64,000 nucleotides of DNA from Thermosynechococcus sp. CL-1 (GTDB taxonomy: Bacteria; Cyanobacteriota; Cyanobacteriia; Thermosynechococcales; Thermosynechococcaceae): the NCBI RefSeq assembly GCF_008386235.1, contig NZ_CP040671.1:620001-684000 (forward strand), read 5' to 3'. The notes under the pieces are model-generated. The model made no database searches and was not told the origin of the DNA. It saw only the letters and a list, made by a program, of their open reading frames with translations. A program made the translations under genes and the position numbers. Positions 29,756 through 47,831 of this stretch are shown here, piece by piece; positions within the stretch are counted from its first letter, which is position 1, and every line of letters begins with the position of its first letter.

Positions 29756-30175
29756 TTAGCTCCAGCCCTCAATGGTGACATCGACGCGATCACTCTCGTG
29801 GGAAAGGGGCGCAATGTTCAAGTAGTACAGGGGCTGATCCGGCGATAAATTCCGCAGCCAATGGAGACATTGGGCATCCACATGGACATAGGAGCCGGTT
29901 TCCACGGGGGTACGGATCAAGGCGGTTGCCGCCACAGAACTCGCAGGGGGCGTCATCGGGTAGGTAATCAGTTCACCAACTCCCGATACAATCAGGAAAA
30001 TATCGTCACCGCGATGGTGGTAATGGGGATAGTTGGCTTGTCTTGGCTCAATGCGATAGAGACTAGAGGCTAGCTCAGGGTTGTGGTGATCCAAGGGACA
30101 GACGGCATAGCCCGGCCGCTTTGGTGTCCAAGTTTGACAGCGCTCAACCAACTCAGGAAAAGAAAAAACTAACAT
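29756..30175 (-). CDS. Cupin-domain protein
   Basis: 139 residues with one cupin beta-barrel. Metal-binding motif 1 is represented by [19 protein letters not shown] near residues 52-70 and motif 2 by [14 protein letters not shown] near residue 100-113. Such single-domain cupins bind a divalent metal and may be isomerases, dioxygenases or sugar-binding proteins; substrate is unknown. Convergent with the coiled-coil gene, and divergent from dapB across about 90 bases. Confidence 0.8.
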
Positions 30176-30265
30176 CGTGCCTTTAGGACAAAATACTCAG
30201 CATTGGCTTATTGTATCGCCAAGCGATCGCGCTATCCTAGCCTGTGGTCTGTGTCGGAGTTTGGC

Positions 30266-31081: not shown

Positions 31082-31082
31082 T

Positions 31083-31946
31083 CTAAACTTCAGGGGTTTG
31101 CTGCAACAACCAAAAGCCTTGCAATGCATCTTGTTCCGGTCGTTCCTTCACTGCGATAAAGTGTAGCCCCTGGCTTTGAGTACAGGCGTCCCTAAAGGCA
31201 GCCAGTTCCTTCTGAATCTGGGGATTGCGGCCACTAATGAGAACCCAGCGATCGCTCGCTCCTGTTTCTAATACCAATAACGGTTGGGGGTTCTCCTCAA
31301 AACTCAAATAGGCCGGCTCTAATCCCGATAGCCAACCCGCTAAGGGCAGTGCGCGCTGCGAATAGATAATTAACCCCGGCAGTAGCGTATCGCCCCTGAG
31401 GGTCAAAAAGGGCAGTGGGGGTACCTCACCAAAGGGCAGTTCCCATTCACCAGCCGTTTTAATTTCCCCCAGAGGAAGACCACTGAATTGCCAGCGATCG
31501 CCCCGCAGGGCTGGTGGTAAAGGTTGAGGTGCAGGGGGGATCAACTGGGGTGGCGTTGCCAGATCGGCTTGGTAGTTGGGTAGGGTTGGATAGAGGTTTG
31601 TGGCGCGATCGCGCAGCCAATCATAGAGGGCAAACGTGCGCCGACTGGGCACCATCACTAATCCTGCCGCTTCTCCCCCCCGCGTAATAATGCTGGTCAT
31701 GGCTCGGCGGAAAAAACGTACCCGATCGGGTTGAGCACTGTTTGCCAGTCCCAGTTGCTGCCGCCATTGATCCATGGCTTCTTTGAGGGCAGCTTCTAAC
31801 CAGCGGGCATTGGCTTCAGCGCCGGCACAAGTTTTGCTGAACTGAAATTGTTGCTGGCGATCGCAAATCAGCAATTCCCAGATTTTTTTGTTGTTTTCAT
31901 CCACAAGGGGACGGGAATAAAAATCCAACTCCCAGATCGTATCCAT
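31083..31946 (-). CDS. Tab2/Atab2 family RNA-binding protein
   Basis: 287 residues opening MDTIWELDFYSRPLVDENNKK, the family signature, with FFRRAMTSIITRG in the middle and the C-terminal FRDACTQSQGLHFIAVKERPEQDALQGFW. In Chlamydomonas Tab2 activates translation of psaB and in Arabidopsis Atab2 acts on PSI and PSII; the cyanobacterial protein is presumed to have a related role in photosystem synthesis. It is divergent from amt. Confidence 0.9.
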   Translation of the reverse strand: MDTIWELDFYSRPLVDENNKKIWELLICDRQQQFQFSKTCAGAEANARWLEAALKEAMDQWRQQLGLANSAQPDRVRFFRRAMTSIITRGGEAAGLVMVPSRRTFALYDWLRDRATNLYPTLPNYQADLATPPQLIPPAPQPLPPALRGDRWQFSGLPLGEIKTAGEWELPFGEVPPLPFLTLRGDTLLPGLIIYSQRALPLAGWLSGLEPAYLSFEENPQPLLVLETGASDRWVLISGRNPQIQKELAAFRDACTQSQGLHFIAVKERPEQDALQGFWLLQQTPEV

Positions 31947-32027
31947 TCACACCTAGAGGAACGTTACCCGCAAACTTGAAGCTATTTGCCTTTCCTAGGA
32001 TAGGCGGTTTTGGCCGTCAAGGTAAAT

Positions 32028-32070
32028 GTATAACCCGATACAGATTTTCCACTGTGAGAACTGGTGCAAT
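32028..32070 (+). promoter_or_regulatory. NtcA box upstream of amt
   Basis: GTA-TAACCCGA-TAC (32028-32041) matches the NtcA consensus GTA-N8-TAC exactly. A weak -10, TGCAAT (32065-32070), follows 23 bases on, the spacing of class II NtcA promoters. The inferred transcript would have a leader of about 130 bases before the amt start. Confidence 0.75.
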
Positions 32071-32207
32071 CAAAGGTTAATTGCGGGTCAATGCTTTGCT
32101 CAGCTCAAGCCAAACAACAGCCAGATCACTTTCTGGCGCGATGGTGCCGCAACTGCGATTTCTCCTCCGCTGAACTCATGTGCAACTCTACTCCATAATC
32201 GTTGAGA

Positions 32208-33653
32208 ATGAAAGCGATGTCCAAGTTAAAACTGAAACGTGCGAGACGGCAAAAGCGCCCGTTACGCAACCTCGACCGGCAGCCCAATTTCCGCTGGCGA
32301 TCGCCAGCCCTTGTCGCCTGCATTCCCCTAGCTTTAATCATTGTGGCTGTTTGGGGAGTGGCTGCTCAGGCACAGGATAAACCCCTCACCCCTGAAACAG
32401 TTCAAGGAGTACTCAACACCATTTGGGTACTCATTGCAGCCATTCTGGTGATTTTCATGAATGCTGGCTTCGGCATGTTGGAAACTGGCTTCTGCCGCCA
32501 GAAAAATGCTGTCAACATTCTTTCTAAAAACCTCATTGTTTTTGCCTTGGCCACCCTTGCCTACTGGGCGATCGGATTCTCTTTCATGTTTGGTACCGAG
32601 GGCAATGCTTTTATTGGCCTAGGGGGCTTTTTCCTCAGTAGTGAAAACCCCGAAACCTACGGTCTTGATCCCTTTCCGGAGGGCTTACCCATCGCTGTGG
32701 CCTTTCTGTTCCAAGCTGCCTTTGCAGGAACCGCAGCCACCATTGTTTCTGGAGCAGTGGCCGAGCGGATCAAGTTTGTTGACTTTTTGATTTTCAGCCT
32801 CCTGCTCACTGGTATCTCTTACCCCATTACGGGTCACTGGGTTTGGGGGGGTGGCCTTCTCAGCAACATTGGTTTCCTTGGCCCAGATATTGCCTTTAAG
32901 GATTTTGCCGGTTCAACGGTGGTTCATGCCGTAGGCGGTTGGTCGGCACTGATGGGCGCTGCGTTTCTAGGACCACGGCTTGGCAAGTATGCCGCAGATG
33001 GTACGCCTCGGGCGTTGCCCGGCCACAACATGGGCTTTGCCATGCTGGGGTGTTTGATCCTCTGGATCGGCTGGTTTGGTTTTAACCCTGGTTCTGAACT
33101 GGCCGCGAATGAAGCTGTACCCTACATCGCAGTCACAACAAACTTGGCGGCGGCAGCCGGCGGGGTTGCGGCAACAATTACCGCTTGGCTAGCCATTGGT
33201 AAACCTGACCTCTCCATGATTATCAACGGTATTCTGGCGGGATTAGTGTCCATTACAGCACCCTGTGCAGGTGTGTCTTACTGGAGTGCCGTGATCATTG
33301 GTGCCATTGGCGGTGTGATTGTGGTCTATTCTGTCCTTTTCTTTGACCGCATCAAAATTGATGACCCCGTCGGCGCCACCTCTGTCCACTTGGTCTGCGG
33401 CACTTGGGGTACCTTAGCTGTTGGCTTGTTTGACAAAGAGTTAGGCTTGCTCACCGGCCACGGAGTGACTCAGTTGATTGCTCAGATTATCGGTATTTTG
33501 ACAGTCGGTGGCTTTACTGTACTGCTGACCAGTATCTTTTGGCTGGCTCTGAAACAAACGCTTGGCATTCGTGTTTCCGAAGAAGAGGAACTCAAAGGCT
33601 TGGACATCGGCGAGCATGGCATGGAAGCCTACAGCGGTTTCTTGAAGGAGTAA
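32208..33653 (+). CDS. amt: Ammonium transporter
   Basis: About 481 residues with roughly 11 membrane helices. Signatures are [41 protein letters not shown] and [20 protein letters not shown]. The basic N-terminus ([13 protein letters not shown]) followed by a hydrophobic segment and AAQAQD resembles a signal peptide, as in cyanobacterial Amt1. Starts at 32208 and 32217 are both possible. The perfect NtcA site upstream indicates induction by nitrogen limitation. An intrinsic terminator follows the stop. Confidence 0.95.
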
Positions 33654-33720
33654 CTCGCCTGCCAATAAGTTTGGGGTCGTACCACGCCGCTGGACGATCC
33701 CATTGCCCTAGGTGGTTTTT

Positions 33721-33751
33721 GCTGTCCTCAGCGTTTGAGGGCAGTTTTTTC
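33721..33751 (+). terminator. Intrinsic terminator after amt
   Basis: CTGTCCTCA and TGAGGGCAG pair across a 5-base loop (one G-U pair), followed directly by TTTTTT. Located about 70 bases after the amt stop and before trmB. Confidence 0.85.
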
Positions 33752-33806
33752 TAACTTTGCAGTGATATACGCTACGCTATAGCGGCAGTACATTAGGGAG
33801 TTTTGG

Positions 33807-34448
33807 ATGAGCGATCGCGCCATGGCGGTACGGGTGCGACAACACGTTAACCCTCTCAGTCAAAAGTTCCAGCAGGACATTGCTGTTCCCGATTGGGCAA
33901 CGATTTACGAGAAACCCTCGCAGCCTTTACATCTCGATATTGGCTGTGCCAAGGGGACGTTCTTGCTAGAAATGGCAGCACTGTATCCAGAGCAAAATTT
34001 TCTGGGTCTGGAAATTCGCTACCCGCTGGTGGTGACGGCCAATGAACGGCGCGATCGCCAGCAACTTCGGAACCTCCACTACCTTTGGGGCAATGCCAAT
34101 GTCCACTTGGGCAAAATCCTCGGCGGACTCCCCCTGCACACCGTCACGATTCAGTTTCCAGATCCGTGGTTCAAGCGCCGTCACCATAAACGCCGCGTCG
34201 TCACCCCTGAACTGGTGGCCACCCTTGCCGAACTCCTGCCCGCTGGTGGGCGTGTTGTCCTTCAGTCAGATGTCTTTGAGGTGGCTGAATCAATGGTGCA
34301 ACAGTTTCGTGCCCATGCCGCCTTTAGCTCAACCTGTACCGATTGGTTACCCCAGAGTCCTTGGCCCGTCGCGACAGAACGGGAAAAATGTGTCCTCAGT
34401 AAAGGATTACCCGTTTACCGCTGGCAATTTGAGCGGTGTGCCCTCTAA
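33807..34448 (+). CDS. trmB: tRNA (guanine-N7)-methyltransferase
   Basis: 213 residues. Rossmann methyltransferase motif LDIGCAKGTFLLEMA near residue 50, the catalytic/RNA-binding segment IQFPDPWFKRRHHKRR, and C-terminal TEREKCVLSKGLPVYRWQF. It makes m7G46 in the tRNA variable loop with SAM. Its last 4 bases overlap the end of the convergent lipase gene. Confidence 0.95.
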   Translation: MSDRAMAVRVRQHVNPLSQKFQQDIAVPDWATIYEKPSQPLHLDIGCAKGTFLLEMAALYPEQNFLGLEIRYPLVVTANERRDRQQLRNLHYLWGNANVHLGKILGGLPLHTVTIQFPDPWFKRRHHKRRVVTPELVATLAELLPAGGRVVLQSDVFEVAESMVQQFRAHAAFSSTCTDWLPQSPWPVATEREKCVLSKGLPVYRWQFERCAL

Positions 34449-35149
34449 CTGGCTTTCAAATACTGCTGCCAAGTAGCGACAATAGCTGGGGAACCGTACC
34501 AAGGGGCATCGGGGCGATCGCGCAAGCGGCTGCGAGGCGCATGGAGCACATCTTCATAGACCAGATTCTCTGCCCCCTCAAGGTGGGCTGCTGCCACCGG
34601 TGTCACCCCATCTCCCCAACAGGCACCCTCGCCACAGGTGAGTTTATAGCTTTGATACGTAAACCAATTGGCAAACGAACCGCGTGGTGTGCCATAGATG
34701 GCCTTGCCCGCCAGACACACATAGCGAACTTGCGGGTAATAGGCACCGGGGTACGTGGTGTTCACAAAGTCAAGATTGCGGCGCGTCCAACGCTCCTGAC
34801 TCCGATGGGGAGTACCCAACGTGATTAGCGTGTGCACCCATTTGTGACCCGCCCAAACTTGGCCATCATAGGGTTGATCCCCTAGGTAAATGCGGCTAAT
34901 CCAGCCCCCCGCTGAGTGGCCAATGAGATGCACGGCGGACGCCCCTGTTGTATTCAGAACATGCTGAATGGTGGTATCCAAGGCCTGTAAAATTGGCGCC
35001 ACCGATCGCCCCCCCAACGTGGGAAACCACGAGCGTACCCTGAGGGGCACCACCTCCGCCACAAACCCCAATTGCCGCAGATAATCCCGCAGTGGGTAAT
35101 AGTCAGGGGCAGCCGCTAAATATCCCGGTAAAAGAACGACAGGCAACAC
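34445..35149 (-). CDS. Alpha/beta hydrolase, lipase-like
   Basis: 234 residues with strand-loop VVLLPGYLAAAPDYYPL (oxyanion loop) and the nucleophile elbow HLIGHSAGGWISR near residue 85. Asp and His of the triad probably lie in GDGVTPVAAAHL and YEDVLHAPRS. Related to triacylglycerol lipase/PGAP1-like esterases; substrate unknown. The start is GTG (35149), 4 bases after the upstream MBL gene stop, so they form a two-gene unit. Confidence 0.8.
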   Translation of the reverse strand: MLPVVLLPGYLAAAPDYYPLRDYLRQLGFVAEVVPLRVRSWFPTLGGRSVAPILQALDTTIQHVLNTTGASAVHLIGHSAGGWISRIYLGDQPYDGQVWAGHKWVHTLITLGTPHRSQERWTRRNLDFVNTTYPGAYYPQVRYVCLAGKAIYGTPRGSFANWFTYQSYKLTCGEGACWGDGVTPVAAAHLEGAENLVYEDVLHAPRSRLRDRPDAPWYGSPAIVATWQQYLKAS

Positions 35150-35153
35150 AGGA

Positions 35154-36041
35154 CTAACTTGCTTGAGGCGTCGCCGGGAAGTGTATCACATTTGGATAGA
35201 CGGAAATCATTAGCCCCTCGCGAGCCAGCAGCGTCTGCGGAAATCGTGCCCGTGCCAACTCACCAATGCGATCTAGACAGTCATCATCATGGCTAGGGTC
35301 ATGGTGAAACAAAATCAGTTGCTTCACTTGGGCGGCTTGGGCTAGCTTGACTCCCTCCTGCCATGTGGAGTGGCCCCAGCCGACCTTACTCTGCTGCGGG
35401 TGATAGTACTCTTCATCGGTATAGGTGGCATCGTAGATCATCACATCGGCGCGATCGGCCAAGGCAAACGCCCCCGGATGCAACTGATCGGGCAAATGCT
35501 CCGTGTCTGTGATATAGGCCACATGGATACCCTGCCAACTCACACGGTAGCCCACCCCCCCACCCGGATGATTCAGGGCTTCATTACTCACCACCACACC
35601 ACCGCCTAGGTGTACCTGTTCGCCCGCCTCCAAGTCATAAAAACGCAAATCTCCCCCCATAATCTGCAACGGGACAGGAAAGTTGGGGTGCAGCATTTGA
35701 TCATTCAGTCGTCGTTCAATGCCTTGGCCATTTTTCCCCGGCACGGCGTAGATATGGAACTGATTCCCCGGTACAAAGGCGGGCTGAAAGAAGGGAAAAC
35801 CCTGAATATGATCCCAGTGGGTATGGGTAAAGAATAAATGTGCCGCCACCGGCTGTTGACTCATTAGGTGCTCCCCCAGAACCCGTAAACCCGTACCACC
35901 GTCAAAAATGATGCGTTGACCATTAGCTTGAATTTCCACGCAGGGAGTGTTACCGCCATAGCGGACAGTGTGGGAACCGGGACAGGGAATACTGCCGCGC
36001 ACGCCCCAAAACCGAATGGTGAGTGGGTTAAACATGGGCAT
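35154..36041 (-). CDS. MBL-fold metallohydrolase
   Basis: About 295 residues. The metallo-beta-lactamase signature HTHWDHIQGFPFF is clear, preceded by TIRFWGVRGSIPCPG and RIIFDGGTGLRVLG, and followed by TDTEHL and FHHDPSHDDD. This set matches the PhnP/CpdA-like MBL branch (phosphodiesterase-type). The first ATG of the frame at 36101 has a purine-rich site; I favour 36041 (MPMFNPLT), because the conserved domain begins there. Divergent from the sigma factor gene. Confidence 0.83.
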   Translation of the reverse strand: MPMFNPLTIRFWGVRGSIPCPGSHTVRYGGNTPCVEIQANGQRIIFDGGTGLRVLGEHLMSQQPVAAHLFFTHTHWDHIQGFPFFQPAFVPGNQFHIYAVPGKNGQGIERRLNDQMLHPNFPVPLQIMGGDLRFYDLEAGEQVHLGGGVVVSNEALNHPGGGVGYRVSWQGIHVAYITDTEHLPDQLHPGAFALADRADVMIYDATYTDEEYYHPQQSKVGWGHSTWQEGVKLAQAAQVKQLILFHHDPSHDDDCLDRIGELARARFPQTLLAREGLMISVYPNVIHFPATPQAS

Positions 36042-36330
36042 ATCGCAAATCTTGATCGTAGTGTGCCACAGAAAACACTCTTGACTTGTGATATGGATCA
36101 TCTTCCCCCTGTGACGCTAGGAGTTGATAGAGTGGGGGCTAGCCGCCACGAAGGTTGGTAAAAAATTTTTTCTAAAATCTGCAAGGCGAGTGCATATTTG
36201 TAAAAACGCCATTGGATAAATGAATGGAGGGTTGTAACAGGAGGATGGATGAAAATGCCCAGTGAATAAAGCAGGCGGTCACGTTTCTCCGTACGGTTGT
36301 CCTTTGATTGATATCTAGTGAGAGCGATTG

Positions 36331-37488
36331 ATGACACGCCAACCCTGCGATAAACTCATTGCTTTGCTCCGATTTGACGGTTCCGATCGCCCGCGCTGGT
36401 ATTGCGATCGCCAACTACAGGCCTACTTCACAGCAGCGGGGTACAACCTCGAGGAGCCGGAGCCGACGGCTGTCTTCCTCCTCCAAAAATTACAGCGTCA
36501 GCCGAACCATGATGATGCCCAGTACTGGCGGCGGGGTCTATTTTGCTATCTCCAAGAAACTAGTTGGTCTGTAGCCATGACCCTGCGGGAGAAACTGGGC
36601 GGGATGCATCAGGTCAGTGACTGTTTTCAGCAGGCTTGCTGTCTCACTAATGATCCCCTCAAGTTATTGAGCAAATTTAAGCCCGAGCGGGGTACGCGGC
36701 TATCCACCTATGCCTATCGCCGTATCTATGACGGTGTGTATGCTGCGCTGGTGGGGGTTCGGAAATCAGATTGGGGCCTACTCAAACACAGTAGTTCCCG
36801 TTCTCTTGCCTCAGCTTTGAGGAACCAAGGATACAGCGAAGGTGACATCAACCGAATCGAAAAGGTTGTCCAGCTCTGGAAAGAGTTGGTGGATCAGCCC
36901 ACTGCTACCGATCAGGCACTGCTGGCTGAGGTGGCTAAAACCTATCGTCAATGTTATTCTCATCTCCCTGCTGTGACTCCTAGCGAAGTTGAAACCCTGC
37001 TTGGTAAAGCGATCGCTGCCTTGCGAGCTTATCACCAACCACAGGTGGTGAATCCTGCTGAGCAAAGGTTTTGGGACACCCTAGAAGGAGGAAATACGCC
37101 TTGGGAAGCAACCCTGAAACAGGAAGAACAGGAAACCCTTAAACGGGTCTTTGAAATGATGAAAAATGCGATTGCAGCACTGGATGACACTAGTCGTCAG
37201 GTGTTTTGTCTGTACTATTGCGAGCAGGTCAGCCAACAAGCAATTGCCCAGCACTTAGGCTTTGCAAAACAATATCAAGTGTCTCGCGTCCTAGAGCGGA
37301 TTCGTGGTCATTTGGCGAAAGTGCTACTCGCAGCCCTTAACCAACCCACGCATCCTCAACGCCTTAAGGAGGTAACAGTGGCTATCAATCTGTGGTTAAA
37401 GGGGGGCTATAAAGTGTTAAGAGCGTCTTGTCAACGGTGTGGTCGGGTGGGTATGGCAGAACACTGTCGTTATGAGGGTGCATCTTGA
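36331..37488 (+). CDS. Alternative sigma-70-like factor
   Basis: 385 residues. A region-2-like segment LLSKFKPERGTRLSTYAYRRIYDGVYAAL lies near residues 112-140 and a region-4 helix-turn-helix near 290-325 (ALDDTSRQVFCLYYCEQVSQQAIAQHL). Between them is a long insert with a helical linker, and the C-terminus holds a CxxC-like Cys cluster (SCQRCGRVGMAEHC), unusual for sigma factors. It fits the divergent group-3/4 sigma genes of cyanobacteria that lie next to DUF1822 and CHAT genes. It begins the operon with those two genes, with gaps of 54 and 30 bases. Confidence 0.78.
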   Translation: MTRQPCDKLIALLRFDGSDRPRWYCDRQLQAYFTAAGYNLEEPEPTAVFLLQKLQRQPNHDDAQYWRRGLFCYLQETSWSVAMTLREKLGGMHQVSDCFQQACCLTNDPLKLLSKFKPERGTRLSTYAYRRIYDGVYAALVGVRKSDWGLLKHSSSRSLASALRNQGYSEGDINRIEKVVQLWKELVDQPTATDQALLAEVAKTYRQCYSHLPAVTPSEVETLLGKAIAALRAYHQPQVVNPAEQRFWDTLEGGNTPWEATLKQEEQETLKRVFEMMKNAIAALDDTSRQVFCLYYCEQVSQQAIAQHLGFAKQYQVSRVLERIRGHLAKVLLAALNQPTHPQRLKEVTVAINLWLKGGYKVLRASCQRCGRVGMAEHCRYEGAS

Positions 37489-37542
37489 CTGTTTTGTAAA
37501 CGGTATGAACTTTTGGGAGTTGTTGTACTTAGGTAAGAAACC

Positions 37543-38925
37543 ATGACATCGCTATCACTGTCGTTTCTCACTGCCATAGATGCGCCACCGATGGCGCACA
37601 CAGAACACGTTCACATTGACTTAACAAATTGTGGCGATCGCCAGTGGATTGAGCAGATCACAGCGGCTGCCCGCGCTTACCGTCGTGGCAGTGTCCGAAT
37701 AAATGCGATGGCCTATGTAGCTGTGCGTGACTGGTTCGCAGCAATGGGCATCAGTGCCGACCCCTTCCTCTCCACCGTCGAACTGCCCATCTTCTGGGAG
37801 TTTGTCAACGGCACCCTGCTGAAGACCGCCATTGGTCAAGTGTTGATTGTGCCTGATACTTCCATAGAGCTTGACGAGTGCCGCATTCCTCAGGAATGGT
37901 TGCACATTGCCGCTTGGAAACCCGATTACATCTTGGGTGTCCAAGTCTTTGCCGAAGAAGCGCAAGTCAGACTCTGGGGCTATGCACCGACTAGCAGCGT
38001 GAATCGTTCTGCCATTGATGCCTTGAGCCGTACCTACACCCTCGATCGCGAGGACATGATCGAAGATGTGCCCCTCCTCGCTGCCTTGCCGGCCTGCCAT
38101 CACATCCCTGTTCCATCACCTGCCGCAACTGCGATTCCCACAGCCACGCTTCAGCAAATTGCCAGTGGTGAGATTCTCTTGCCCCGCTTGGTGTTACCCC
38201 TAGAGGAATGGCTGCACATCATTGGGCAACCTCGCCATCGCCTTGATCTCTTTTTGGCCTGTCATCCGCAGCGGCTGAGTCTATGGCTTTATGCCAAGAC
38301 CAAGGGCGTGAGCAACCTGTTGGGTCAAGTGTGGCAAGACGTGCAGGAACTGCTTGAGGAGGGCGCTATGATCAATCCCTATCTCAGTTGGAAGCTGGGC
38401 TGGACATCGCCAGAGTGGGCATTGCGCTCCAATGACACCTTAGAAGCCATGCAAGCTCAAGCTCAATTACGCCAAGCCTTGGCAACGGAGGATTGTCGCC
38501 AAGCGGTTGCCCTCCTCAAAGACCTGATTGCCACCACTGCCGATGAAGGATTGCGCTGGCTGGCGGCAGAATATCTCCACGCTAAAGATGCCACTGCCCC
38601 AGAAGCAGGGGTGTGGAAAACTCGTACCGTGGACTTGGGTCTTGCCCTCGGCGGACAGTCCTTCGGCTTGGTCATGGCCGTACTGCCGCGAGATACGATG
38701 TCTGCCAATATTCTTGTGCGCGTCACTGCCCTCAAGGTAGGTGAAACGTTGCCCCCAGACTTGGTTTTGATGATTACTGAGGCCAATGGCAATACCTTTG
38801 CCCAAGTCACTAGTCGGCAGCAGGATCAAGCGGTGCAGTACAAGTTTTGGGGACAAATTGGCGAAACTTTTGGCATCACATTGGCCTATGGAGATGCTAA
38901 GATCACGGAAACTTTTGTTGTCTAG
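37543..38925 (+). CDS. DUF1822 family protein
   Basis: 460 residues, soluble. The C-terminal 110 residues are the conserved part (VDLGLALGGQSFGLVMAVLP ... VTALKVGETLPPDLVLMI ... FWGQIGETFGITLAYGD), a beta-rich domain. N-terminal 200 residues have alternating helices and strands. No catalytic motif is visible. DUF1822 genes typically sit between a sigma factor and a CHAT protein, as here, so a regulatory or substrate role is likely. Inferred from context: it could hold the sigma factor or be cut by the CHAT protease. Confidence 0.8.
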   Translation: MTSLSLSFLTAIDAPPMAHTEHVHIDLTNCGDRQWIEQITAAARAYRRGSVRINAMAYVAVRDWFAAMGISADPFLSTVELPIFWEFVNGTLLKTAIGQVLIVPDTSIELDECRIPQEWLHIAAWKPDYILGVQVFAEEAQVRLWGYAPTSSVNRSAIDALSRTYTLDREDMIEDVPLLAALPACHHIPVPSPAATAIPTATLQQIASGEILLPRLVLPLEEWLHIIGQPRHRLDLFLACHPQRLSLWLYAKTKGVSNLLGQVWQDVQELLEEGAMINPYLSWKLGWTSPEWALRSNDTLEAMQAQAQLRQALATEDCRQAVALLKDLIATTADEGLRWLAAEYLHAKDATAPEAGVWKTRTVDLGLALGGQSFGLVMAVLPRDTMSANILVRVTALKVGETLPPDLVLMITEANGNTFAQVTSRQQDQAVQYKFWGQIGETFGITLAYGDAKITETFVV

Positions 38926-38955
38926 CTGCATTGGCTCTTTTTGATTGCCGCTGCG

Positions 38956-41376
38956 ATGAAACACGTCTGTCTCGAAATCTACGGGGGTTGCCTTGAGCAG
39001 CATTCCCTCAAGGGTCGCCTATTACTGGGGACAGAAAGCCAAGTGGATGCCTATGGGGTGTATCCTGTAGAGTTTCCAGCAATGCCTCACCTTCCGCACC
39101 GCTATCGGCAGTGGCGTGACGCCTATCACGGCTATGCGAAGAATACTCGTCTGGGGGCTAGCGGTAACCAGATTACGAACATTGGTACTCAGCAACCCAC
39201 CCTCCTTAAAGAGGTACGGCAAAACTACACTGACCTTGTGACCACCCTTGGCACGTGGTTGCACAATACGCGCATCTGTTATCTCTGCGAGGAACAGATC
39301 AATGAGCAAACTTCACTTTCTAAGGAGCAGACTTCATTTTTTGGCCTAGGCAACTTTATCTTGCCGCCGCCGATGAACGAGATTCACCGCATTTCTGTGC
39401 AGACAGATTTTGTTGAACTGTGGCGCTATCCATGGCACGACTGGACACCGATTCGCCAACACAGCAATCTGGATGTGGTGTTTTCACCAATGGTGTATCA
39501 GTCCCTGAAGTCTTCGACAGCGCACCATGAGGGAGTACGGATTCTGGCAATTTTTGGCGCGAGTGGCGACCTTGATCTCAAGGGGGATCTTGAGGCTCTC
39601 AGGGCGTTGCCCAATGTCGAACTCCACTGCCTGCGATCGCCCCAATTAAGTGAACTCTATTCCCTGTGGTGTCAGCCTTGGGACATTCTCTTTTTTGCTG
39701 GGCATAGTCAGGGTAACGGCATTATTATCAACAATGAAGAGGAACCATTAGAGATTCGCGAACTTTATCGCACGCTTGAACGTGCAGTGGCGCAGGGGCT
39801 AAAACTGGCAATCTTTAATTCCTGCAACAGTATTCCCCTAGGACAGTTTTTGATTCAATTGGGCTTGCCCCACGCGATCGTGATGCGCGAAGCGGTTCCG
39901 AATATTGCCGCTGAGTTGTTTTTGAAGTACTTTTTACAGAACTTTCACGGCGGTGCAGATCTCTATGCCGCTGTAGCTCAAGCGCGATCGCAATTACGCG
40001 AACTGAGTCGCTGCGATGATCATCTGCCGGGCACATCAGCGCTTCCCTTAATTTGCCGCCATCCCCAAGCGCGCTGCCTACACTGGCACCATTTACGCCG
40101 ATCAGAAGCCCCTGCTGTTACAGTTGGTGTGTCTGGGGGCGATCGCTCCTCCCCAAGGGTTTCTAAATTTCCCGCATTCCTCTACTGGTGTCGCTGGCAA
40201 CTGGAACTGGCGCAACTGCTGCCCCACGCCCAAGATCCTAGTCGCTGGGTGACAGCAATTCCTGGGGGTTGCAGTCCCCAAAGGCCACAGCAAAACTACC
40301 AAGAGGCCTTTGCGAATGTTGCCCACTGGGTCTGCGGCCTCGAGCGCACTATCGGTGGCTTTTCCCCTCAAGCGGAGTTGGCCTTTTTCTTTCCTGCCCT
40401 AGAGGCTGAGGCTCGGCAACTTCTAGCGCGGATCTCTAGCCAACAGCTGCTGCCTTACTTGGAATCCTTGGTGGTGGAGCAGCGGGGTCTCCCCCGTGTC
40501 CGTGCCGCTTTTTTAATTGCGCAGCAATATCCCAATGTCAGCCACCTCAGTACAGCGTTTCAAGTTTTAGAGGATACCTTACGCCAAGACACCAAGCCCC
40601 AAGTGCGCGAAGAACTATTAGCGGAGTGTCAGCAATTTCTCAAGGAGCTAGATGCCAAGCTTGTCAGGAGCGTTTGGGACAGCACCACGGGAGAGCGCCT
40701 ACAGCAGTTTTTACAGCGGCTGCTCCATTATCCCCAACAGTCTAACCGCCTGAAACTGGCGATCGCCTCTGTTCTGATTACGGCAAAAGGCCGTTGGGCG
40801 GTTGAAGCTAGCAATGTTGCCCTAGAAATTTTTCGTAACTCCTCATACCTAGAGGATGTGATCCTTGCCAGTCGCTGTTTACACCAAGCGGGGGTGCAGC
40901 AGTGGGAGGTTGTTGGCCGACTAGAGCGCTATTTGGGCTTGGCCACGGTGCAGTCCCACCAGATTGCCCTTGCCGGCGCCCTTGGCCTTGTTAGTCCGAA
41001 TCATCCCCAAGCCATTGACACCCTTGAGTTAATCATTGAGCAGCAGGCCTACGATCTGGAAACATTGATGGCGGCGGTGCGTGCCCTTCACCGCATTTCC
41101 CCTGAGCATCCCCTTGTGTTGGCGACCCTGCGATCGCTCTTGGTCAAGGCACAGGAAACCCAAGATATTCTCGGCTTTTACTATGGGCTAGCAGCTCTCG
41201 ATGACTTGCAGCAGCCCCTAACCCCCTACATCTCAACTACAGTCATCCCATGGGTTTGCCAGAAAATTGCGGTTTTTAAGGCGCAAGAAGAACCTTACCT
41301 GATGGCTCCCTATACCGTGCTGTGGTACTGTAGCCGCCATATTTCCTACCAAGAATTTGCAAATTTTTGGCAATAG
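38956..41376 (+). CDS. CHAT-domain cysteine peptidase with helical repeat C-terminus
   Basis: 806 residues from ATG 38956. Residues about 195-365 form the CHAT caspase-like domain: RILAIFGASGDLDLKGD, the His loop FFAGHSQGNGI (His250) and the Cys loop AIFNSCNSIPL (Cys290), the expected catalytic dyad 40 residues apart. From about 430 onward the protein is helical, with HEAT/TPR-like pairs (VVEQRGLPRVRAAFLIAQQ) that may sense or dock partners. N-terminal 190 residues are unassigned. Third gene of the sigma-DUF1822-CHAT operon. An upstream in-frame TTG at 38941 is less likely. Confidence 0.86.
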   Translation: MKHVCLEIYGGCLEQHSLKGRLLLGTESQVDAYGVYPVEFPAMPHLPHRYRQWRDAYHGYAKNTRLGASGNQITNIGTQQPTLLKEVRQNYTDLVTTLGTWLHNTRICYLCEEQINEQTSLSKEQTSFFGLGNFILPPPMNEIHRISVQTDFVELWRYPWHDWTPIRQHSNLDVVFSPMVYQSLKSSTAHHEGVRILAIFGASGDLDLKGDLEALRALPNVELHCLRSPQLSELYSLWCQPWDILFFAGHSQGNGIIINNEEEPLEIRELYRTLERAVAQGLKLAIFNSCNSIPLGQFLIQLGLPHAIVMREAVPNIAAELFLKYFLQNFHGGADLYAAVAQARSQLRELSRCDDHLPGTSALPLICRHPQARCLHWHHLRRSEAPAVTVGVSGGDRSSPRVSKFPAFLYWCRWQLELAQLLPHAQDPSRWVTAIPGGCSPQRPQQNYQEAFANVAHWVCGLERTIGGFSPQAELAFFFPALEAEARQLLARISSQQLLPYLESLVVEQRGLPRVRAAFLIAQQYPNVSHLSTAFQVLEDTLRQDTKPQVREELLAECQQFLKELDAKLVRSVWDSTTGERLQQFLQRLLHYPQQSNRLKLAIASVLITAKGRWAVEASNVALEIFRNSSYLEDVILASRCLHQAGVQQWEVVGRLERYLGLATVQSHQIALAGALGLVSPNHPQAIDTLELIIEQQAYDLETLMAAVRALHRISPEHPLVLATLRSLLVKAQETQDILGFYYGLAALDDLQQPLTPYISTTVIPWVCQKIAVFKAQEEPYLMAPYTVLWYCSRHISYQEFANFWQ

Positions 41377-41437
41377 TTAACTTCCCCGCAGGGGCGTGAG
41401 ATCGAGCGCTTTCTGGGGATCAACTGTAGGACTAAAG

Positions 41438-41500
41438 AAAAAATGGGGTCGTCGCAATGACTGACCCCGCCTGCCGATTCCTCAGAGAGGAGAACACTAA
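41438..41500 (-). ncRNA. Candidate small RNA with intrinsic terminator
   Basis: A predicted RNA of about 63 nt on the minus strand. It begins near 41499, about 7 bases below a strong -10, has a short hairpin (TCCTC-TCT-GAGGA), an unpaired stretch, and ends in a stem-loop (GGGGTC...GACCCC, 41445-41468, with inner GTC/GAC pairs and one bulged base) followed by TTTTTT (41438-41443). No reading frame fits. It lacks the Yfr1 motif ACUCCUCACAC and the GGAAACA motif of Yfr2. The gene lies convergent to the CHAT operon and downstream of sbcD. Confidence 0.72.
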
Positions 41501-41534
41501 GACTTAGCCTAAGTCAGATGAGAAAAAATGTCAA
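41501..41534 (-). promoter_or_regulatory. Promoter and palindromic operator of the small RNA
   Basis: On the minus strand: consensus -35 TTGACA (41529-41534), a 17-base spacer and -10 TAGGCT (41506-41511). The perfect inverted repeat GACTTA-GCC-TAAGTC occupies 41501-41515 and covers the -10, where a repressor would block RNA polymerase. Confidence 0.72.
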
Positions 41535-41864
41535 CAAGCTCGAAGAAAAAATTTGCCCAAGATGCCGCACACTCCCTTGCCCCCTCTCCCTCAGATTCCA
41601 AGCCATGGGCTTTCGCCCTAACCTCTGAGAAAAGTTACCACTGCTTAGGGGGGTGCTCAAGGTTGAAGAGTTGCTCAGCCCTCAACACCAATTGCGGGAG
41701 TAGCGTTGATCGAATTAGGGATTGTCCTGATGCATCAGTCTGGTTCCCGTGATGTTCGCAGGCCAGTGCGCACGCCAATGCCACCGGGGAAAATTTCGAA
41801 GGGTAAATGATTCGCCTTAATTTCGTTTTCAAGTGTGGTGAATAAAAATCAAATAATTGCGATA
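41535..41864. other. Unassigned intergenic sequence between small RNA and sbcD
   Basis: About 330 bases. It carries the perfect hairpin GGGC-TTTC-GCCC (41607-41618; GAAA tetraloop when read on the minus strand) and short open frames on both strands with no family resemblance and low-complexity composition. I do not support a gene here. A degenerate mobile-element end is possible but unproven. Confidence 0.5.
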
Positions 41865-43178
41865 TTAGGAGAGCAATTTCAGTTGCTGAATCACAGGTTC
41901 GGGCGATCGCGCAGCGCGCCCTTCAGGCGATCGCGGCATCTCTGGAGTGTCTTGACCCTCTTCTTCAGAGTGGTCATCAAGGGTTTGGAGTGCCGCTAGC
42001 AGATCTTGGTGCAGCGGTTCAAGGTCAGGGTGATGATCCAGATAGAGTTGCAGAGCATGGCTGGGGTCAAGGCACTGTTCGAGGGCAACTTCTGGCAGGC
42101 GGGCAATGGGCTGGCTATTCACCAGTTGAGGCAGAAGGCTGACGCTGTGGGCACTTTCAAGCGCTTTTTGCAGTTCATGGAGGTTGATCAGGGGAATTTG
42201 ATCGGGGCGCAGTTGATACATGACCCGCACCACAGCCCCGCTGATCTCCCCGCGGGCGATTGCTCCCAAGAGGGCGGCTTGGGGATCCAGTTCCACCTCG
42301 GTTAAGTCCACACGAATAGTGCGGAAGGGGCGGGTGGGTAGGGGACAAAACTGAAATTCTGTTTTGCCCTTAGCAAGGTTCACTAAGACATAGCCCTTTT
42401 CTTCCCCCTCTTCACCAAAATCCACCCGCTCAATGCTGCCGGGATAGACCACGGGTGGATCGTGACACAGGACTTGATGGCGATGCACATGGCCAAGGGC
42501 AACGTAGTCAAAACAGGGGCGCGCCAAAAAACTCAGGGGAATCGTAAAACCTTTGCCGGCACTCAAATAGCGTTCAGAGCCGTACTGGGCGGTGTCCACC
42601 ATGGCATGGGCAAGTAAGACAGTGGGCAAGGCCGGATCAAGTTGGCGAATTTCCCCCTCAAGGGCAAGGCGCAGCCGCTCTAGGAGCAGTTGATGCACAT
42701 CCGCAAGGGAAAGGCCACTGGTTTCTGGCCGAGTGAGGAGCGTAGATCGCGTTAACCAAGGGAGGGTAATGACTTGAACACTGCCGCGGCGAGTCTCAAT
42801 GCGATGGGTAGCCAAGCGATCGCCCACGATAAAACCGGGCACCCCAAGGGTGCGATAAAGACTGAGGCTCGCGCCCCCCTGTCCTTGGGCGTGCTGATCG
42901 TGGTTGCCCACCAGCAAAACCGTAGGAATGCGGGCATCGGCCAAGCGGCGAAATTGGCTGGCAAAGGCTTCATGGACGAGAGGGGGTGGCGTGGCATCGG
43001 GAAAGGCATCACCGCCAAAGAGCACCAGATCAACGGGTTCACTGAGGGCACGGTCAATACAGGTGGCCAGAGCAGCAATAAAATCCTCAAGGCGCGTATT
43101 CAAGCCGGTGGCCGGGTTAATGTGGCCATGACTGAGGCCACTGCCTAGGTGAATATCGGACACATGGAGAATTTTCAT
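41865..43178 (-). CDS. sbcD: Metallophosphoesterase of the SbcD/Mre11 family
   Basis: 437 residues. Mre11-type nuclease motifs in order: KILHVSDIHLGSG (I), LVLFGGDAFPD (II), VLLVGNHDQHAQG (III), VLLAHAMVD (IV) and FDYVALGHVHRHQ (V). It should act as exonuclease/endonuclease with the SbcC ATPase on hairpins and breaks. No sbcC is adjacent. The C-terminus is extended and acidic (about residues 395-425). It is 5 bases after pgm and in the same direction. Confidence 0.9.
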   Translation of the reverse strand: MKILHVSDIHLGSGLSHGHINPATGLNTRLEDFIAALATCIDRALSEPVDLVLFGGDAFPDATPPPLVHEAFASQFRRLADARIPTVLLVGNHDQHAQGQGGASLSLYRTLGVPGFIVGDRLATHRIETRRGSVQVITLPWLTRSTLLTRPETSGLSLADVHQLLLERLRLALEGEIRQLDPALPTVLLAHAMVDTAQYGSERYLSAGKGFTIPLSFLARPCFDYVALGHVHRHQVLCHDPPVVYPGSIERVDFGEEGEEKGYVLVNLAKGKTEFQFCPLPTRPFRTIRVDLTEVELDPQAALLGAIARGEISGAVVRVMYQLRPDQIPLINLHELQKALESAHSVSLLPQLVNSQPIARLPEVALEQCLDPSHALQLYLDHHPDLEPLHQDLLAALQTLDDHSEEEGQDTPEMPRSPEGRAARSPEPVIQQLKLLS

Positions 43179-43183
43179 AGCGA

Positions 43184-44857
<1,674 letters not shown>

Positions 44858-44941
44858 TTAGTCGGCTCCAGAATCGTGGTCAAGACCTTTCCATATAGTA
44901 TGCGATAGTATGCCTTTGCCCTAATTGATTTTCTGAGAGAC

Positions 44942-44971
44942 TTGTCATCGCACCTAGACGCTTGCTAAAAT
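44942..44971 (+). promoter_or_regulatory. Promoter of tRNA-Phe
   Basis: -35 TTGTCA (44942-44947), an 18-base spacer and -10 TAAAAT (44966-44971), placing the transcript start near 44978, about 10 bases before the tRNA. Confidence 0.75.
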
Positions 44972-44987
44972 CATAAAGCACTTTCAA

Positions 44988-45060
<73 letters not shown>

Positions 45061-45071
45061 TCGCCGACAAG

Positions 45072-46010
45072 ATGCGCCTCGTTTCGCTCCTACCGAGTGC
45101 CACAGAAATTGTTGCTGCCCTAGAATTGACACCGTTTCTTGTGGGGCGTAGCCATGAATGTGACTATCCGCCAGAGGTGAAGACATTGCCTGTTTGTACA
45201 CGGGCAAGGTTAGATACACAGCAGTCAAGTTTAGCAATTGATCGGGCGGTTCAAGACCTCCTGCGATCGGCTCTGGGCATTTATGACTTGGAACTGGCGA
45301 CCCTGCAAGCGCTAAAACCGACCCACATCATTACCCAAGATCAATGCGATGTTTGTGCTGTAACCTTTGCAGAGGTGCAGGGGGCAATCGCCAGACTCTT
45401 TGAGCCACCACCGCAGTTAATTTCCCTCCAACCCCATTGCCTTGAGGATGTCTGGCAGGATATTCGGCGGGTGGGTCTTGCCCTCGGTATCTCTCCCGAC
45501 CCCCTACTGAATTCGCTACACACCAGAATTCATGCCTGTCAAGCATGGGTGAGCGATCGCCCGCGGCGGCAAGTCGCGACCATTGAATGGATTGACCCCC
45601 TCATGGCCAGTGGCAATTGGGTACCGGAATTGATTGCCCTCGCGGGGGGTGAAAATGTCCTCGGTACAGCAGGAAAACATTCCCCCTACATTGAGTGGTC
45701 AACACTTCTGGCGATCGACCCGGAGGTGATCATTGTCATGCCCTGTGGCTTTGACCTCGAACGCAGCCGTCAAGAACTTGACCAAGCCTTGCACACTTAT
45801 CCCCAGTGGCAGCAATTGCGTGCCCTGCAAACAGGTCAACTGTACATTGTTGATGGCAACGCCTATTTCAACCGCCCCGGCCCCCGCTTAGTGGATTCCC
45901 TTGAAATTCTTGTCGAGATTCTCCACCCACCCCAAGAACCAAAATTTCAAGGCATGGGTTGGCAACCCTACAGCCCTTTTCCCAAGGATGGCACACCCTC
46001 ACAGCTGTGA
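45072..46010 (+). CDS. BtuF/TroA-like cobalamin or siderophore binding-domain protein
   Basis: 312 residues. MRLVSLLPSATEIVAALE starts directly with the class III solute-binding fold, so no signal peptide is present and the protein should stay in the cytosol. Further family features are VGRSHECDYP, THIITQDQCDVCAV and SPYIEWSTLLAIDPEVIIVMP. Such signal-less paralogues are widespread and often annotated as cobalamin-binding; ligand unproven. ATG at 45072 is the only sensible start, because the open frame above it runs into the tRNA. Confidence 0.8.
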   Translation: MRLVSLLPSATEIVAALELTPFLVGRSHECDYPPEVKTLPVCTRARLDTQQSSLAIDRAVQDLLRSALGIYDLELATLQALKPTHIITQDQCDVCAVTFAEVQGAIARLFEPPPQLISLQPHCLEDVWQDIRRVGLALGISPDPLLNSLHTRIHACQAWVSDRPRRQVATIEWIDPLMASGNWVPELIALAGGENVLGTAGKHSPYIEWSTLLAIDPEVIIVMPCGFDLERSRQELDQALHTYPQWQQLRALQTGQLYIVDGNAYFNRPGPRLVDSLEILVEILHPPQEPKFQGMGWQPYSPFPKDGTPSQL

Positions 46011-46229
46011 AAGCCAGTGCCGGCAAGGATTTGATTTCCTATCCCCTATTTCAGCAAAGGGCAGCTGTACGCGCCATCAATCGCAGGAGGATGGCACCAA
46101 CGATAAATCTGAAGAAAAGATAAAAATTACCCGTTGCAGATTTGGCTATTTCGCCTAAGATGAGGGAAACTCAACTGATCTCATTGATCCCCTGCCGTTG
46201 TCCCAAATACATAAATAGGCAAGCTTCCT

Positions 46230-47819
46230 ATGGCAATTGGTTATTTAGCGCTGGTTTTGCATGCTCACCTCCCCTTTGTCCGCCACCCCGAGAGTGACTA
46301 CGTTTTAGAAGAAGAGTGGCTCTTTGAGGCAATTACCGAAACCTATGTGCCCCTGATCTGGATGTTTGAGGGGCTAAAGCGTGACGGCGTGGACTTCAAA
46401 ATCACCATGAGTATGACGCCGCCATTAATTTCAATGCTGCGGGATCCGCTACTTCAGGAACGCTACGATCAGCACTTGGCAAAACTAGAGGAACTGGCAG
46501 AACTAGAGGTAGAGCGCAATACCTACAATGGCCACATCCGCTACCTTGCCGAGCACTATGCCCAAGAATTCAACCGCGTACGGCAGACATGGGAAAACTA
46601 CGATCGCGACCTCGTCAAGGCCTTTAAGCAGTTTCAAGACACCAATAACCTTGAAATCATTACCTGTGGTGCCACCCACGGCTACCTGCCCCTCATGAAA
46701 ATGTATCCCCAAGCGGTGTGGGCACAACTGCAAGTGGCCTGTGAGCACTATGAACAAACCTTTGGCCGCCCGCCCAAGGGCATTTGGCTGCCAGAATGCG
46801 CCTATTACGAAGGCCTAGAGCGAATGCTGGCCGATGCGGGTTTGCGCTATTTCATTACTGATGGCCATGGTATTCTCTATGCCCGTCCGCGGCCTCGCTT
46901 TGGCACCTATGCGCCTATTTTCACCGAAACTGGGGTGGCTGCCTTTGGCCGTGATCATGAATCCTCCCAGCAGGTGTGGTCGTCAGAGGTGGGCTATCCG
47001 GGGGCGCCTGAATACCGTGAGTTCTACAAGGACTTGGGGTGGGAAGCGGAGTACGAATACATCAAGCCCTACATCATGCCCAATGGCCAACGCAAAAATA
47101 CGGGGATTAAGTACCACAAAATTACCGGGCGCGGTCTTGGTTTAGGGGACAAGCAACTCTACGACCCCTATTGGGCACGGGAAAAGGCGGCTGAGCACGC
47201 TGCCAATTTCATGTTTAACCGCGAAAATCAAATTCGCTACTTGCACCACCTAATGCAGCGTCCGCCAATTGTGGTCTCTCCCTACGATGCTGAACTCTAT
47301 GGCCACTGGTGGTATGAAGGGCCTTGGTTCCTTGACTTTCTCTTCCGCAAGGTCTGGTTTGACCAAGACACCTTTGCCATGACCCACTTGGCAGACTATC
47401 TGCGCGCCCATCCCACCCAGCAGGTGTGCCGTCCGTCCCAGTCCAGTTGGGGCTACAAGGGCTTCCATGAATACTGGCTGAATGACACCAATGCTTGGAT
47501 TTACCCCCACCTCCATAAGGCTGCTGAACGGATGATTGAACTGGCCAAGGGGGAGCCGTGGGATGAATTGAGTTGGCGTGCCCTCAACCAAGCGGCACGG
47601 GAATTACTCCTTGCCCAATCCTCAGACTGGGCTTTTATTATGCGGACGGGAACGATGGTACCCTATGCGGTTCGCCGCACCCGTAGCCACTTGATGCGCT
47701 TCCACAAGCTCTATGATGACATCAAGGCACAAAAAATTGATGCGGGTTGGCTGGAAAAAGTGGAAGCTATTGACAATATCTTTCCCCACATTAACTATCG
47801 GGTCTATCGCCCCTTGTAA
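46230..47819 (+). CDS. GH57 glucan-branching enzyme (DUF1957-type)
   Basis: 529 residues. Starts MAIGYLALVLHAHLPFVRHPE, the catalytic GH57 barrel's first strand. The nucleophile lies in GIWLPECAYYEG (Glu near residue 190), the acid/base Asp in SPYDAELYGHWWYEGP (near 355). C-terminal helical domain (from about 415) includes QSSWGYKGFHEYWLND. It introduces alpha-1,6 branches into glucans and so serves glycogen. No clear operon partner; the 219 bases upstream hold no gene. Confidence 0.92.
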   Translation: MAIGYLALVLHAHLPFVRHPESDYVLEEEWLFEAITETYVPLIWMFEGLKRDGVDFKITMSMTPPLISMLRDPLLQERYDQHLAKLEELAELEVERNTYNGHIRYLAEHYAQEFNRVRQTWENYDRDLVKAFKQFQDTNNLEIITCGATHGYLPLMKMYPQAVWAQLQVACEHYEQTFGRPPKGIWLPECAYYEGLERMLADAGLRYFITDGHGILYARPRPRFGTYAPIFTETGVAAFGRDHESSQQVWSSEVGYPGAPEYREFYKDLGWEAEYEYIKPYIMPNGQRKNTGIKYHKITGRGLGLGDKQLYDPYWAREKAAEHAANFMFNRENQIRYLHHLMQRPPIVVSPYDAELYGHWWYEGPWFLDFLFRKVWFDQDTFAMTHLADYLRAHPTQQVCRPSQSSWGYKGFHEYWLNDTNAWIYPHLHKAAERMIELAKGEPWDELSWRALNQAARELLLAQSSDWAFIMRTGTMVPYAVRRTRSHLMRFHKLYDDIKAQKIDAGWLEKVEAIDNIFPHINYRVYRPL

Positions 47820-47831
47820 TTGGGGCAGTGG

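What the first reader, a model, noticed from the sequence alone, without database searches (positions are those of the whole stretch)
36331..41376. Sigma factor - DUF1822 - CHAT protease operon as a possible proteolytic transcription switch
A divergent sigma factor, a DUF1822 protein and a CHAT cysteine peptidase with an intact His250/Cys290 dyad and helical-repeat sensor are packed in one operon (54- and 30-base gaps). In type III-E CRISPR systems a TPR-CHAT protease cleaves an inhibitor to free a sigma factor. The same logic without CRISPR would make the DUF1822 protein the sigma-holding substrate and the CHAT C-terminus the trigger sensor. The motifs and order are seen; the mechanism is inference. 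The C-terminal Cys cluster of the sigma factor is also unusual.
Basis: partly seen in the sequence, partly recalled or inferred. Interest (0 to 1): 0.78.

Follow-up and report, generated by a model that had tools for sequence, protein, structure and literature searches.

The report
Cyanobacterial sigma–DUF1822–CHAT protease signalling operon
Three neighbouring genes of a cyanobacterium look like a signalling chain in which a caspase-like protease with a built-in sensor acts, probably through a partner protein, on a gene-switching sigma factor; related chains are spread through the cyanobacteria, but I found no experimental test of one.

Summary
In detail: a divergent sigma-70 factor, a DUF1822 protein and a CHAT peptidase with intact His250/Cys290 and a HEAT-repeat C-terminus lie head to tail. 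Strong matches to this CHAT subtype occur in 20 of 20 DUF1822-bearing genomes tested and 0 of 24 lacking it. The dyad is kept in 85 of 88 aligned rows while the attached sensor module is exchanged. The modelled CHAT region folds like separase and Csx29. A sigma–DUF1822 fusion model has pTM 0.69, a DUF1822–CHAT one 0.56. I infer sensor-CHAT to DUF1822 to sigma, most likely by cleavage of DUF1822 as anti-sigma; binding and cleavage are not shown. No CRISPR array lies nearby. A closely similar gene set was described in 2021 (PMC8195603): a new member of a described kind. Exported-looking DUF928 accompanies only CHASE2 forms (36 of 50 against 0 of 35).

The parts
36331..37488 (+). Sigma-70 family factor, 385 aa, divergent
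   Evidence: TIGR02937 64.2 bits (cut-off 42.9); the 50 rows shown are sigma-type chains, Z 8.5-10.2, 177-247 residues aligned, rmsd 23.9-28.6, over model residues 15-344 (domains placed differently from those in the solved chains)
37543..38925 (+). DUF1822 protein, 460 aa; proposed holder of the sigma factor and proposed protease target (inference)
   Evidence: PF08852 E 2.1e-84; dN/dS 0.16 against two congeners
38365..38430 (+). DUF1822 residues 275-296: flexible segment between the N-terminal part and the C-terminal helices plus beta domain; the cleavage region I would test first (inference)
   Evidence: pLDDT under 50 at 275-296 and at 288-295 in the other model
38956..41376 (+). CHAT peptidase with HEAT-repeat C-terminus, 806 aa, no transmembrane-like stretch by a simple hydrophobicity scan
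38956..40110 (+). CHAT region (residues 1-385), modelled as a two-lobed separase/Csx29-like peptidase fold
   Evidence: separase Z 24.6 (rmsd 3.8, 317 aligned), Csx29 Z 22.4 (rmsd 3.6, 288 aligned)
39703..39705 (+). His250 codon of the catalytic dyad
39823..39825 (+). Cys290 codon of the catalytic dyad
40111..41373 (+). HEAT-repeat sensor region (residues 386-806), with an NCC-H-like tail below that family's cut-off
   Evidence: HEAT_2 28.6 bits (cut-off 27.7); NCC-H E 9e-4, 19.3 bits (cut-off 27)

Best explanation
A self-contained, CRISPR-free signalling chain. The DUF1822 protein binds the sigma factor and keeps it off RNA polymerase. The CHAT protein is a separase/Csx29-like cysteine peptidase whose C-terminal module senses the signal: in the window a soluble HEAT-repeat array, in most relatives examined a membrane-spanning CHASE2 domain. 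When the sensor is engaged, the peptidase cuts DUF1822, most likely in its flexible segment around residues 275-296, and the freed sigma factor switches on its regulon. Shown here: recurrent order, sigma and DUF1822 as usual neighbours, co-occurrence of this CHAT subtype with DUF1822, intact dyad, predicted fold of the peptidase, exchange of the sensor, dN/dS below 1. Inferred: the sigma-DUF1822 contact (a model score only), the direction of control, the cleavage and its place, and the signal.
For: CHAT within 600 bases downstream in 47 of 76 named loci not cut at a contig edge and in 86 of 137, three of the latter being TPR-CHAT proteins of another architecture. CHAT-N matches with E under 1e-35 in 20 of 20 DUF1822-bearing genomes, 0 of 24 without DUF1822 over the family cut-off; strong long-sigma matches in 9 of 9 against 0 of 21. 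Dyad kept in 85 of 88 aligned rows. Csx29, which cleaves the sigma inhibitor Csx30, is among the best fold matches (biology from abstract and passages of PMC10028731). Sensor type changes at least 11 times on a quick CHAT tree. Sigma-DUF1822 fusion pTM 0.69 against 0.56 for DUF1822-CHAT at near-equal length, depth and pLDDT. dN/dS 0.16-0.53 for the three genes. Precedent in cyanobacteria: HetF can cleave PatU3, which limits HetZ (passages of the review PMC12288457).
Against: No cleavage, binding or expression data. 42 of 137 loci have sigma-DUF1822 without a CHAT match within 600 bases (a few at contig edges), and in 20 genomes 18 of 42 long DUF1822 matches have no CHAT-N next. 13 of 137 loci have CHAT behind DUF1822 with no sigma match within 600 bases upstream (in one of them, L070, the sigma match lies in the same broken ORF). 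pTM 0.69 is only moderate, from single-chain fusions, with no complex prediction and no inter-domain error. The DUF1822-CHAT model gives no sign of a fixed contact (0.56). The flexible segment lies in blocks filled by a mean of 29-33 rows, against 47-56 for most other blocks, so it is not universal. A conserved block upstream of the operon has no second copy in the genome, so no regulon was found. Two of 16 strong long-sigma matches have no DUF1822 beside them (my reading).
Confidence: 0.48

Rival explanations
1. Same chain, other target: DUF1822 is an adaptor or co-activator and the CHAT peptidase cuts the sigma factor itself (a pro-sigma) or cuts itself (autoproteolysis), which then signals through DUF1822 to sigma. 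Autopeptidase activation is what Kaur et al. 2021 proposed for their caspase/sigma/DUF1822 neighbourhoods.
For: Section 9 of PMC8195603. DUF1822 also occurs before CHAT without a sigma match upstream (13 of 137 loci), as an adaptor of CHAT might. The C-terminal end of sigma is poorly conserved and could be trimmed.
Against: The fold models favour a sigma-DUF1822 contact over a DUF1822-CHAT one. Sigma-DUF1822 pairs occur without a neighbouring CHAT (42 of 137), as a sigma/anti-sigma pair would.
Confidence: 0.24
2. Death effector under its own switch: sigma and DUF1822 only control transcription of the operon, and the CHAT peptidase acts on many cell proteins as a stress- or phage-triggered effector.
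For: Caspase-like and STAND architectures are known from conflict systems (recalled; see also PMC8195603, passages); one relative has a caspase C14-nSTAND1 protein behind DUF1822 (L145). Patchy presence with repeated loss in the genus.
Against: No PADLOC model matched the three window proteins at E up to 0.01. Most sensors are CHASE2 (42 of 53), a receptor domain, which suits signalling better than suicide.
Confidence: 0.17
3. Chance or loose neighbourhood: three unrelated genes that share a promoter.
For: Three genomes (G213, G146, G136) keep their CHAT-N genes away from DUF1822.
Against: Recurrent order across the phylum and the co-occurrence.
Confidence: 0.03

Closest known systems
EACC2-caspase / ECF sigma / DUF1822 neighbourhoods (Kaur et al. 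2021, eLife, PMC8195603; section 9 read)
   Same: Constant N-terminal module plus caspase-like domain, highly variable C-terminus, neighbours an ECF sigma factor and DUF1822
   Different: Their text proposes autopeptidase activation, calls DUF1822 a TPR protein and gives it no role in that section; DUF928 does not occur in the paper.
Type III-E CRISPR CASP/Craspase: Csx29-Csx30-CASP-sigma (PMC10028731; abstract and passages seen)
   Same: A CHAT peptidase, a sigma-holding protein (here only proposed) and a sigma factor encoded together; CHAT fold match Z 22.4, rmsd 3.6, 288 aligned
   Different: No CRISPR-like repeats in window 30000-50000, no sequence match of DUF1822 to a solved chain, CHAT in front of its sensor rather than behind a TPR part
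HetF-PatU3-HetZ of Anabaena (passages of the review PMC12288457, and of PMC8406250; the 2022 PNAS paper is not held)
   Same: A cyanobacterial CHAT peptidase that can cleave a protein limiting a transcription regulator
   Different: HetZ is not called a sigma factor in those passages; hetF lies away from the hetZ-patU3 cluster (recalled); HetF has a transmembrane and a TPR part. Weaker CHAT matches, which might include HetF, occur in genomes without DUF1822.
DdvA, transmembrane anti-sigma factor (PDB 8rw5, 8rot; entry titles only)
   Same: Its chain contains a region with the CHAT/separase fold: Z 16.9, rmsd 3.4, 257 aligned
   Different: There the fold is part of the anti-sigma factor itself; the two papers listed by a search for it are by title on other subjects

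Membership tests
sigma-70 family factor | Match to a curated sigma model over its cut-off | tested here: met
   TIGR02937 64.2 bits, cut-off 42.9; Pfam regions 2 and 4 below cut-off
DUF1822 (PF08852) | Full-length profile match over gathering score | tested here: met
   284 bits, cut-off 25, positions 1-370 of 370
CHAT peptidase (clan CD) | Profile match over cut-off | tested here: met
   PF12770 89 bits, cut-off 24
CHAT peptidase (clan CD) | His/Cys dyad | tested here: met
   H250, C290; kept in 85 of 88 aligned rows, the other three without CHAT context there
CHAT peptidase (clan CD) | Separase/Csx29-like fold | tested here: met
   Predicted model, Z 24.6 and 22.4
CHAT peptidase (clan CD) | Proteolytic activity | not testable with these tools
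   Needs an assay
Caspase/ECF sigma/DUF1822 neighbourhoods (Kaur 2021) | Sigma and DUF1822 genes beside a caspase-like gene with a variable C-terminus | tested here: met
   description read
Caspase/ECF sigma/DUF1822 neighbourhoods (Kaur 2021) | The EACC2 domain as they define it | not testable with these tools
   No model or alignment of EACC2 was available
Type III-E CRISPR CASP | CRISPR array beside the genes | tested here: not met
   No direct repeats of 22 bases or more, seed 14, spacing up to 200 bases, in window 30000-50000; Cas7-11 was not searched for
Type III-E CRISPR CASP | Csx30 homologue | tested here: inconclusive
   No sequence match of DUF1822 to any solved chain at E up to 1; DUF1822 was not folded alone
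HetF | CHAT with one transmembrane segment and a TPR part (as in PMC8406250) | tested here: not met
   No transmembrane-like segment by a simple scan; HEAT_2, no TPR match
Anti-sigma factor (for DUF1822) | Binds and inhibits its sigma factor | not testable with these tools
   Only neighbourhood and a fusion model

The most novel reading that the evidence does not exclude
Cyanobacteria carry a phylum-wide, CRISPR-independent class of one-step proteolytic sigma switches: an exchangeable receptor fused to a separase-like CHAT peptidase, DUF1822 as a new class of cytoplasmic anti-sigma factor destroyed by that peptidase, and, for the CHASE2 forms, an exported DUF928 protein as a dedicated periplasmic partner of the receptor. 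The Csx29-Csx30-CASP-sigma arrangement would then be one CRISPR-fed instance of a wider logic.
Probability: 0.38. Interest if true: 0.82.

Novelty: new member of a known kind. Interest (0 to 1): 0.58.

Why it matters
Among the papers I saw, control of a sigma factor by a CHAT peptidase is shown only for CRISPR III-E (PMC10028731). If DUF1822 is a cleaved anti-sigma factor, cyanobacteria would have a modular set of such switches (seven DUF1822 matches in G001), and a protein family named in only two papers of the library searched would get a function. The window version, apparently fully soluble and with three genes, would be the easiest to rebuild in vitro.

Tried and rejected
CRISPR III-E membership: no array in window 30000-50000, no solved-chain match of DUF1822. 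Anti-phage island: no PADLOC hit for the three window proteins. Cys cluster as a zinc or redox switch: only a CxxC in close relatives. Autoregulatory promoter: a conserved block upstream of sigma (36274-36296, picked by eye) has no second copy in the genome at up to 3 mismatches, and the scan of 36033-36340 found no sigma-70-type promoter. Known RNA in 35900-42000: none at E up to 1. Known structure for DUF1822: no sequence match; in the fold searches the sigma and CHAT parts fill the lists, so the DUF1822 fold remains open, and the weak beta-sandwich rows are not used. NCC-H tail: below cut-off in the window and two congeners, not seen in a third. A profile of the third genes with their sensors matched no solved chain; the CHAT part alone matched one, a SAVED-CHAT protein, E 4e-4.

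Limits of the counts. A4 was too large to scan, so 53 third genes (A5) were scanned instead. A1 holds 40 of 59 fourth genes, A2 49 of 61 upstream genes not caught by the long-sigma profile, A3 21 of 30 third genes not caught by the CHAT profile. The 20 DUF1822-bearing and 24 lacking genomes were picked by me from those already listed, the former partly for good assemblies; two of the 24 (G021, G025) have a weak DUF1822 match below cut-off. The E 1e-35 line between this CHAT subtype and other CHATs was drawn after seeing the scores; weaker CHAT matches (E 6e-32 to 2e-11) occur in 6 of the 24. For one search, 21 of the 24 and 9 of the 20 were used. The Fisher p ignores relatedness. The tree is a quick one (29 of 81 inner branches open); one of 85 rows was dropped as short and 8 of the 84 rows, with unlabelled sensors, were left out of the count of changes. 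Sensor labels come from my own profiles. Gene tables rest on my own ORF tiling; an earlier, stricter tabulation gave sigma as direct upstream neighbour in 111 of 137 and sigma-DUF1822 without CHAT in 36. The TPR-CHAT profile was built from five seeds, one of which (L003) was translated in a wrong frame; it served only for the TPR-CHAT counts. Of the 42 'sigma, no CHAT' loci some are edge or decay cases (L071, L072, L110, L150), L190 has CHAT further on, and L145 and L194 have a caspase and a trypsin-like protein there. G022 and G023 of the genus were not examined at the trio's site.
Full report
What is there. Three + strand genes lie head to tail: a sigma-70 family factor (36331-37488), a DUF1822 protein (37543-38925) and a CHAT peptidase (38956-41376), with 54 and 30 bases between them. 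The sigma factor is divergent: it passes the general NCBIfam sigma model but no Pfam sigma cut-off. DUF1822 matches its profile end to end. The third protein has a CHAT domain over residues 69-377 with HEAT repeats behind it at the edge of the HEAT_2 cut-off; its dyad is H250/C290. The genome holds six CHAT matches but only one strong DUF1822 match.

Conservation. DUF1822 is absent from the 14 control genomes and present, over the family cut-off, in 176 of 291 genomes sampled from the phylum; many of these, in one family (f31), are single weak matches. A pattern scan of the species-genome collection gave 425 relatives, and the best 80 that were returned are all cyanobacteria by title. In 137 loci taken around DUF1822 matches, a sigma-type match lies within 600 bases upstream in 115 and a CHAT match within 600 bases downstream in 86; 73 have both, 42 only sigma, 13 only CHAT, 9 neither. 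Two sigma types occur: long ones of about 390-630 aa, and short ones of about 220 aa, recognised mainly by position, by a weak general sigma-model match in 9 of 49 upstream proteins scanned and by a weak profile match to a solved RpoE (E 0.006). Both sets were drawn by DUF1822, so the reverse was tested: in 20 genomes 46 strong CHAT-N matches were found, 27 directly behind DUF1822 and 7 more within 12 kb; of 42 long DUF1822 matches 24 have CHAT next. In 24 genomes without DUF1822 over cut-off there was no strong CHAT-N match, and in 21 of these no strong long-sigma match. Against this, in G213, G146 and G136 the CHAT-N genes lie away from DUF1822, and two of 16 strong long-sigma matches have no DUF1822 beside them.

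The third gene is a peptidase with an exchangeable sensor. H250 and C290 are both kept in 85 of 88 aligned rows; the other three show no CHAT context at these columns. Of 53 third genes scanned, all match CHAT and 42 CHASE2; others, scanned one by one, carry periplasmic-binding, nSTAND1-WD40, nSTAND1-GUN4 or TPR modules behind CHAT, and one has pentapeptide repeats in front of it. One locus has a caspase C14-nSTAND1 protein behind DUF1822 and one a trypsin-like protein. On a quick tree of 84 CHAT regions the sensor type changes at least 11 times. The window, three congeners with whole genes and one broken copy form the HEAT group, without transmembrane-like segments, so probably cytoplasmic.

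A fourth gene. Of 40 fourth genes scanned 31 match DUF928. With a local profile, DUF928 lies within 600 bases behind the third gene in 36 of 50 CHASE2 forms and in 0 of 35 of all other forms, window included; 39 of 46 DUF928-like ORFs have a hydrophobic stretch within the first 75 residues, as exported proteins do. DUF928 is therefore likely a partner of the CHASE2 receptor and not of the core (inference). A CHASE2 and a DUF928 gene within one cluster of closely arrayed genes were noted in print for one Nostoc (passages of PMC5587647).

Fold models. AlphaFold2 on a sigma-DUF1822 read-through fusion (864 aa, 88 rows) gave pLDDT 84.5 and pTM 0.69; on DUF1822-CHAT(1-390) (861 aa, 86 rows) 83.7 and 0.56. 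The sigma half matches sigma chains with its domains placed differently. The CHAT half matches separase (Z 24.6), Csx29 (Z 22.4), gingipains (Z 17.9-19.2) and a region of the anti-sigma factor DdvA (Z 16.9). DUF1822 has a flexible segment at 275-296 between its N-terminal part and the C-terminal helices and beta domain.

Evolution in the genus. At the site between the metallo-hydrolase-like gene (35154-36101) and the SbcD-like gene (41865-43178; both names from recall), the trio is whole in the window genome, G020 and G028, decayed in G024, and deleted in G021, G025 and G027 with remnants of the CHAT 3' end left behind; G026 has it whole and G019 broken at another place. G022 and G023 were not examined there. 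It is thus repeatedly lost, i.e. dispensable in some settings. dN/dS between G000 and G020 or G028 is 0.16 for DUF1822, 0.21-0.24 for CHAT and 0.40-0.53 for sigma, so the intact copies are under constraint, sigma least.

How it most likely works. Sigma-DUF1822 is the more constant pair, and this CHAT subtype was not found in the 24 genomes without DUF1822. The simplest chain is sensor to CHAT to DUF1822 to sigma, with DUF1822 as anti-sigma factor and substrate. Two precedents exist: Csx29 cleaving the sigma inhibitor Csx30 (PMC10028731, abstract and passages) and HetF cleaving PatU3, which limits HetZ (review PMC12288457, passages). The chain and its order are well supported by neighbourhood and co-occurrence; cleavage, its place, the sign of control and the signal are inference. 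Autoproteolysis or sigma processing, and a death-effector role, remain open.

What is known. The library of 5.39 million open papers holds two papers with DUF1822. One of them describes neighbourhoods of a constant N-terminal domain plus caspase with variable C-termini, an ECF sigma factor and DUF1822, and proposes autopeptidase activation (section 9 read). The window trio fits that description and is best filed as a member with a soluble HEAT sensor. I found no statement in the papers seen that DUF1822 is an anti-sigma factor or that DUF928 belongs with CHASE2 forms of this system; closed-access papers were not searched.

Noticed in passing
window 41425-41540, minus strand (fold tested on 41438-41505): A single-copy stretch of about 100 bases just downstream of the CHAT gene; matches in 21 of 29 family genomes, near full-length in the genus and a core of about 37 bases in others, including genomes without the trio. 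On the minus strand it folds to -23.8 kcal/mol (z -2.1) with a G+C-rich hairpin followed by U's. No Rfam match at E up to 1; the promoter/terminator scan found nothing. Possible small RNA.
   Followed up: partly
G000:C1:29774-30103 (L008): A 268-aa ORF with a weak, below-cut-off DUF1822 match; similar single weak matches occur in several congeners and in many genomes of another family. Perhaps a distant relative of DUF1822.
   Followed up: no
L081:8257-9105 and other fourth genes in related loci: Exported-looking DUF928 gene only behind CHASE2-type CHAT genes (36 of 50 against 0 of 35).
   Followed up: yes
L145:2165-5965, L194:5112-6878: Caspase C14-nSTAND1 protein and trypsin-like protein behind DUF1822: other peptidase folds where CHAT usually is.
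   Followed up: partly
L099, L100, L101 (G021, G025, G027): Deletion scars of the trio with leftover CHAT 3' ends at the syntenic site.
   Followed up: yes
window 36331-37488: The sigma gene evolves faster (dN/dS 0.40-0.53) than its DUF1822 and CHAT neighbours (0.16-0.24) within the genus.
   Followed up: no
L129, L134, L137: TPR-CHAT proteins (CHAT at the C-terminus) directly behind sigma-DUF1822, a second CHAT architecture in the same slot.
   Followed up: partly
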